Shown here: piece after piece, positions 24,998 through 25,120 of the stretch
Numbering within the stretch: the stretch's first letter is position 1
Layout: each line of letters begins with the position of its first letter
Origin: Oscillospiraceae bacterium
Lineage (GTDB): Bacteria; Bacillota; Clostridia; Oscillospirales; Ruminococcaceae
DNA: 64,000 nt
Assembly: GCA_021201235.1 (NCBI GenBank)
Contig: JAJQFI010000025.1
Location: 124,001-188,000, forward strand
Direction: 5' to 3'
The notes under the pieces: generated by a model
What the model saw: only the letters and a program-made list of their open reading frames with translations
Databases searched by the model: none
Told to the model about the DNA's origin: nothing
Made by a program: the position numbers and the translations under genes

Positions 24998-25120
24998 CTT
25001 TACAAGCCCGCACTTTTTGTATAGGCGGCGGAACGCCTTCTGACAGTTCGCACTTTTTTGTCGGGCGGCGAAACGCCCTCTTTACAGCTCGCACTTGGGG
25101 TACAGGCGGCGAAACGCCTT
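24998..25120 (-). ncRNA. ToxI-like type III antitoxin RNA: three tandem repeats (42, 40, 41 nt)
   Basis: Minus-strand units AAGGCGTTTCGCCGCCTGTACCCCAAGTGCGAGCTGTAAAG / AGGGCGTTTCGCCGCCCGACAAAAAAGTGCGAACTGTCAG / AAGGCGTTCCGCCGCCTATACAAAAAGTGCGGGCTTGTAAAG. Confidence 0.88.

What the first reader, a model, noticed from the sequence alone, without database searches (positions are those of the whole stretch)
24998..25120. Repeat units covary in two helices and a loop-loop pairing, supporting a pseudoknotted ToxI RNA
Minus-strand units read AAGGCG-UUUCGC-CGCCU..UACCCCAAGUGCGAGCUGUA.., AGGGCG-UUUCGC-CGCCC..GACAAAAAAGUGCGAACUGUC.. and AAGGCG-UUCCGC-CGCCU..UACAAAAAGUGCGGGCUUGUA... (a) Stem 1: A-U in units 1 and 3 becomes G-C in unit 2. 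(b) Stem 2: U-A becomes G-C in unit 2 (UACA/UGUA vs GACA/UGUC). (c) Loop 1 UCGC can pair with loop 2 GCGA; in unit 3 these become CCGC and GCGG together. Three compensatory changes in ~123 nt suggest selection on structure. The sequence was not matched to a known ToxI family, so this may be a distinct RNA subfamily.
Basis: partly seen in the sequence, partly recalled or inferred. Interest (0 to 1): 0.82.

Follow-up and report, generated by a model that had tools for sequence, protein, structure and literature searches.

The report
ToxIN antitoxin RNA repeat array

Summary
The letters described are present at window 25001-25123 (minus strand). The three ~41-nt units lie between a sigma-70-like promoter and an intrinsic terminator, followed by a 198-aa ToxN/AbiQ toxin (PF13958, E 2e-40). 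[quoted passage not shown] The unit core matches Pectobacterium ToxI position by position.

The extra helix between long loop 2 and the 3' tail (b) pairs above chance only in this lineage and is at chance elsewhere (p 0.40); it rests on about one double substitution.

The alternative GGCG-UUU-CGCC fold shows no covariation and is broken in relatives.

The missing Rfam match is not evidence for a distinct subfamily: RF02519 also missed P. atrosepticum and lactococcal ToxI and hit only the Bacillus one.

Verdict: new member of a known kind. A ToxI variant with a hairpin in loop 2, often a single unit, was noticed in Treponema relatives.

The parts
25145..25173 (-). Putative promoter: TTGCAT (25173-25168), 17-nt spacer, TATACT (25150-25145)
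   Evidence: Read; same arrangement before the arrays of L002-L004, L028, L029. The -35 matches only 3 of 6, so the consensus scan did not list it.
25127..25138 (-). 5' leader hairpin GGAU-GAAA-AUCC just after the expected start of transcription
   Evidence: Read; L003 has GGAC-GAAA-GUCC, a compensatory change.
25083..25123 (-). ToxI unit 1: core AGGCGUUUCGCCGCCU, loop 2 GUACCCCAA, GU, GCGA, tail GCUGUA
25042..25082 (-). ToxI unit 2: core GGGCGUUUCGCCGCCC, loop 2 GACAAAAAA, GU, GCGA, tail ACUGUC
25001..25042 (-). ToxI unit 3: core AGGCGUUCCGCCGCCU, loop 2 AUACAAAAA, GU, GCGG, tail GCUUGUA
24974..24993 (-). Intrinsic terminator GAGGAGGGUUUGCCCUCCUC-UUUU between array and toxin
   Evidence: same position in relatives
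24358..24954 (-). toxN (198 aa), ToxN/AbiQ-family endoribonuclease; K38, S62 and K64 align with Lys33, Ser53 and Lys55 of characterised ToxN, Ser61 with Thr52
   Evidence: PF13958 2e-40; PADLOC AbiQ 5e-25; PDB ToxN 2xd0, 4ato, 7d8o; alignment

Best explanation
The array is the antitoxin (toxI) of a chromosomal ToxIN type III toxin-antitoxin system. One promoter drives the three repeats; the terminator ends most transcripts, so much more antitoxin than toxin mRNA is made. ToxN would cut the precursor in the A-rich junctions (GUAA/AAG; predicted) into single ~41-nt units. Each unit folds as an H-type pseudoknot: stem 1 pairs positions 1-4 with 13-16, and stem 2 pairs loop-1 positions 8-11 with 23-26. 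Each unit occupies ToxN in a ring of alternating protein and RNA. When phage infection stops antitoxin supply, ToxN is freed and cleaves cellular RNA. Shown here: the family of the toxin, the operon layout, the homology of the RNA and covariation of both stems. Inferred from characterised relatives: processing, assembly, toxicity and phage defence.
For: Toxin: PF13958 E 2e-40, AbiQ, PDB ToxN relatives, active-site lysines and serine conserved. Operon: promoter, array, terminator, toxin, the layout used to define type III loci (PMC5086642, PMC8860590). RNA: 16-nt core plus A19 A20 G21 U22 G23 C24 match P. atrosepticum ToxI. Stems 1 and 2: 192/192 cells paired in 24 units, covariation score 0.417 against 0.226 in shuffles, slid controls at most 53% paired. 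Across 38 hand-registered units, stem-2 pairs 9-25, 10-24 and 11-23 are 38/38; pair 10-24 shows GC, GU, AU, UA and CG.
Against: No expression, cleavage or toxicity data. The junction between units 2 and 3 (GUC-AGA) lacks the AAA of the others, so processing there may differ. Position 12 is C, not the U of the U:U:G triplet in E. coli ToxI. Toxin residue 52 is Ser, not Thr. Shuffle controls do not remove shared ancestry.
Confidence: 0.95

Rival explanations
1. One reading: the units form two hairpins, stem 1 and a second stem of loop 2 with the 3' tail (UAC/GUA, GACA/UGUC, UACAA/UUGUA), joined by loop-loop pairing; a three-helix ToxI.
For: 3, 4 and 5 bp in the window's units. The GAC/GUC change is kept in L002 and L003, and L003 unit 3 has ACA/UGU. 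Cognate pairing beats permuted pairing in this lineage (p 0.05) and over the whole set (p 0.0003 free, 0.0035 anchored), with the excess coming from this lineage.
Against: Outside the lineage there is no excess (p 0.40 anchored, 0.10 free). The related copy L028 in a genome of the same genus has only UA/UA. Loop 2 of P. atrosepticum ToxI is too short for it. The tail is where ToxN binds and cuts ToxI in crystal structures (PMC8860590).
Confidence: 0.2
2. Each unit folds as the simple GGCG-UUU-CGCC hairpin (positions 2-5 with 9-12), without a pseudoknot.
For: Sterically possible, favoured by the minimum-energy fold of part of the array, and open to 20 of 38 units.
Against: No change on both sides at any pair. 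Family-wide pairing is no better than shuffled, with 18 of 38 units unable to form all four pairs, for example L028 unit 2 with A12.
Confidence: 0.03
3. The array is a meaningless tandem repeat or part of the plus-strand 130-aa reading frame (24754-25146).
For: A plus-strand frame is open across it.
Against: The plus frame overlaps toxN antisense and was not pursued as a gene; the minus-strand array keeps its place before toxN in every intact close relative examined, with compensated changes.
Confidence: 0.01

Closest known systems
ToxIN of Pectobacterium atrosepticum pECA1039 (PDB 2XDB/2XDD)
   Same: Same toxin family; 16-nt core with stem 1 AGGU/ACCU, G5, loop 1 plus stem-2 segment of equal length, then AAGUGC; promoter-array-terminator-toxin order
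   Different: Loop 2 is 5 nt longer here; position 12 is C not U; 3 units instead of 5.5; toxin 33% identical in the aligned set
AbiQ/antiQ of Lactococcus lactis (closest copy found here: plasmid p001F, L066)
   Same: Same long loop 2 (AUAYCCC), ~41-nt units, ToxN/AbiQ toxin 34% identical
   Different: Stem 2 is UCGC/GUGA or UCAC/GUGA; position 12 is U; tail CUUAAAUU
ToxN/AbiQ systems of Oscillospiraceae and Lachnospiraceae MAGs (L002-L008) and Enterococcus plasmid pGTC3 (L064)
   Same: 45-96% identical toxins and near-identical ToxI layout
   Different: Loop 2 and tail vary; the loop 2-tail complementarity is not kept
ToxI candidates HMP2_3156 and HMP2_5421 upstream of ToxN in Clostridiales (PMC8040213)
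   Same: Structured RNA directly upstream of ToxN in gut bacteria
   Different: Sequences not compared here; reported only as candidates
Rfam RF02519 ToxI
   Same: Same functional class
   Different: Model of 34 positions that matches the Bacillus mycoides units but not P. atrosepticum, Lactococcus, Enterococcus or the window

Membership tests
ToxIN family of type III toxin-antitoxin systems | Toxin of the ToxN/AbiQ protein family | tested here: met
   PF13958 139 bits against cut-off 25; ToxN chains in PDB
ToxIN family of type III toxin-antitoxin systems | Tandem repeats upstream, then Rho-independent terminator, then toxin, with a promoter upstream | tested here: met
   promoter -35 is weak but kept in relatives
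ToxIN family of type III toxin-antitoxin systems | Repeat forms the ToxI H-type pseudoknot (S1 4 bp, S2 about 4 bp, G5, A19-A20) | tested here: met
   Position match and covariation; by sequence only, no probing
ToxIN family of type III toxin-antitoxin systems | U12, U22 and G21 of the base triplet (conserved among E. coli ToxI; not a defining feature of the whole family) | tested here: inconclusive
   U22 and G21 kept, but position 12 is C. Family-wide, 12 varies together with 21 (C-G, U-A, U-G, G-C; 35/38, shuffle mean 29.9), so it varies within ToxI
ToxIN family of type III toxin-antitoxin systems | Toxin cleaves the precursor at A-rich junctions and forms a 3:3 ring | not testable with these tools
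   Three of four junctions read GUAAAGA and look suitable; the unit 2-3 junction GUCAGA does not
CptIN or TenpIN families | Toxin of the CptN or TenpN family | tested here: not met
   Only PF13958 reported up to E 1; structural relatives are ToxN and AbiQ
Rfam RF02519 ToxI | Match at or above the gathering score | tested here: not met
   No match; the model also misses P. atrosepticum ToxI, so this does not argue against ToxI function

The most novel reading that the evidence does not exclude
In the lineage of this genome, ToxI has gained a third short helix between its long loop 2 and its 3' tail. Loop 2, normally a groove-binding strand, would then be locked onto the segment that ToxN cuts, which could tune processing or cognate specificity unit by unit.
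Probability: 0.15. Interest if true: 0.45.

Novelty: new member of a known kind. Interest (0 to 1): 0.25.

Why it matters
It adds a well-resolved chromosomal ToxIN group in Oscillospiraceae-type Clostridia and shows that three units of one array carry enough internal variation to read out the known ToxI pseudoknot. It also shows that the public Rfam ToxI model misses most of the family seen here, so absence of a match should not be read as novelty. The same sequences suggest that position 12 varies together with position 21 in the inter-stem triplet, which can be tested directly.

Tried and rejected
Rfam at gathering and at E up to 10: no ToxI match, explained by the narrow model. Three pattern scans and one protein scan of viral contigs: no close relative; one distant ToxN (L063). 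The phage collection gave one unannotated contig with the hairpin-type antitoxin. MFE folding of the array alone is uninformative because it cannot show pseudoknots and gives z -1.5. My first structure string for the Treponema alignment was out of register and was replaced.

Full report
WHAT IS THERE. On the minus strand, three units of 41, 41 and 42 nt occupy 25123-25001. Upstream are TTGCAT-17-TATACT and a small GNRA hairpin. Downstream are the terminator GAGGAGGGUUUGCCCUCCUC-UUUU (24993-24974) and a 198-aa reading frame starting with ATG at 24954. That protein is ToxN/AbiQ: PF13958 at 139 bits, PADLOC AbiQ, and solved ToxN chains 2xd0, 4ato and 7d8o by sequence. In a ten-sequence alignment the residues corresponding to Lys33, Ser53 and Lys55 are invariant, while Thr52 is Ser here and in several relatives (residue roles from PMC8860590).

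REGISTER WITH KNOWN ToxI. Using the published numbering (PMC8860590), unit 1 reads A1 G2 G3 C4 G5 UUU C9 G10 C11 C12 G13 C14 C15 U16, loop 2, A19 A20 G21 U22 G23 C24 G25 A26. P. atrosepticum ToxI fetched here reads AGGUGAUUUGCUACCU-UU-AAGUGCAG. Core length, G5, A19-A20, G21 and U22 coincide; loop 2 is 5 nt longer here, as in the lactococcal antiQ-like plasmid copy (AUAYCCC).

COVARIATION. In 24 units of the close group plus antiQ-like units, all 192 cells of stems 1 and 2 form standard pairs, four pairs change on both sides, and the score is 0.417 against 0.226 (sd 0.024) in shuffles. Slid registers pair in at most 53% of cells. Over 38 units from 22 loci (registered by hand), pairs 2-15 and 9-25 are 38/38, and 10-24 is 38/38 with five pair types where shuffles give 17.8. 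Pair 1-16 is looser (26/38). Position 12, U in E. coli ToxI, is U, C, A or G and tends to match position 21 (35/38 against 29.9; p 0.0002 by shuffling). This fits the known 12-22-21 triplet, with C12-G21 here. The shuffles ignore ancestry, and my register at 21-22 is a judgement, so that point is a lead.

THE THIRD HELIX. I tested whether each unit's loop 2 pairs better with its own tail than with other units' tails. All units: p 0.0003 free, 0.0035 anchored. Lineage L001/L003 alone: p 0.05. All others: p 0.10 free, 0.40 anchored. The signal comes from the window's lineage, where unit 2 changed U-A to G-C once. It is absent in L005, L028, L029 and the lactococcal copy. L070 unit 2 (GUGUU/AACAU) and L008 unit 1 (AAC/GUU) are isolated matches. 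I treat it as unproven.

THE ALTERNATIVE FOLD. GGCG-UUU-CGCC has no pair that changes on both sides. It is broken in 18 of 38 units, including L028 unit 2 of the same genus, which has A12 while stem 1 stays intact.

RFAM. The window array has no match. RF02519 matched B. mycoides units (59 bits) but none of P. atrosepticum, L. lactis, E. faecalis or the Lachnospiraceae relative.

SPREAD. Among genus relatives this ToxI type occurs in 4 of 31 genomes, always with a ToxN. A class-wide model search found more in other families, again before ToxN in the strong matches; the matches below about 27 bits look like chance. The closest loci are metagenome-assembled Oscillospiraceae and Lachnospiraceae, with a 47% relative on an Enterococcus plasmid.

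MECHANISM. From characterised ToxIN systems (PMC5086642, PMC8860590), the transcript would be cut by ToxN in A-rich junctions, and three units with three toxins would form a ring. Junctions here are GUAAAGA (leader to unit 1, unit 1 to 2, after unit 3) and GUCAGA (unit 2 to 3). None of this was tested here.

Noticed in passing
L009-L019, L021 (mostly Treponema), L041, L067 (gut phage contig MT837915): ToxI-like antitoxin whose loop 2 carries its own hairpin (GCGG..CCGC, UAUGG..CCAUA, UGAU..AUCA). All four hairpin pairs change on both sides in 12 sequences (95.8% of cells paired). Most Treponema copies have a single unit between promoter and terminator. I found no description of this in the papers searched.
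   Followed up: partly
L038 (own genome, C32:156513-156770) and L035 (same genus): A second ToxIN with three antitoxin units, but ToxN appears to carry an in-frame deletion of the N-terminal half including the active site (compare intact L022). Two genomes share it: an antitoxin array kept beside an apparently dead toxin.
   Followed up: partly
L093-L095: toxN lacks its 5' end directly after the terminator, and the second ToxI unit has lost stem-2 pair 9-25 (C-A): antitoxin structure decays where the toxin is broken.
   Followed up: no
L044, L046, L047, L049, L051: ToxN loci with one ordinary ToxI-like unit (GGGUGUAUCUCAGCCC) and a second, differently built unit (GUGAGCUUCUCUUGGCUC).
   Followed up: no
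window 25288-28650 against L003: The close relative L003 has the toxIN locus but lacks the window's ppx/ppk-like genes between toxIN and the next shared stretch, so the neighbourhood is rearranged.
   Followed up: no
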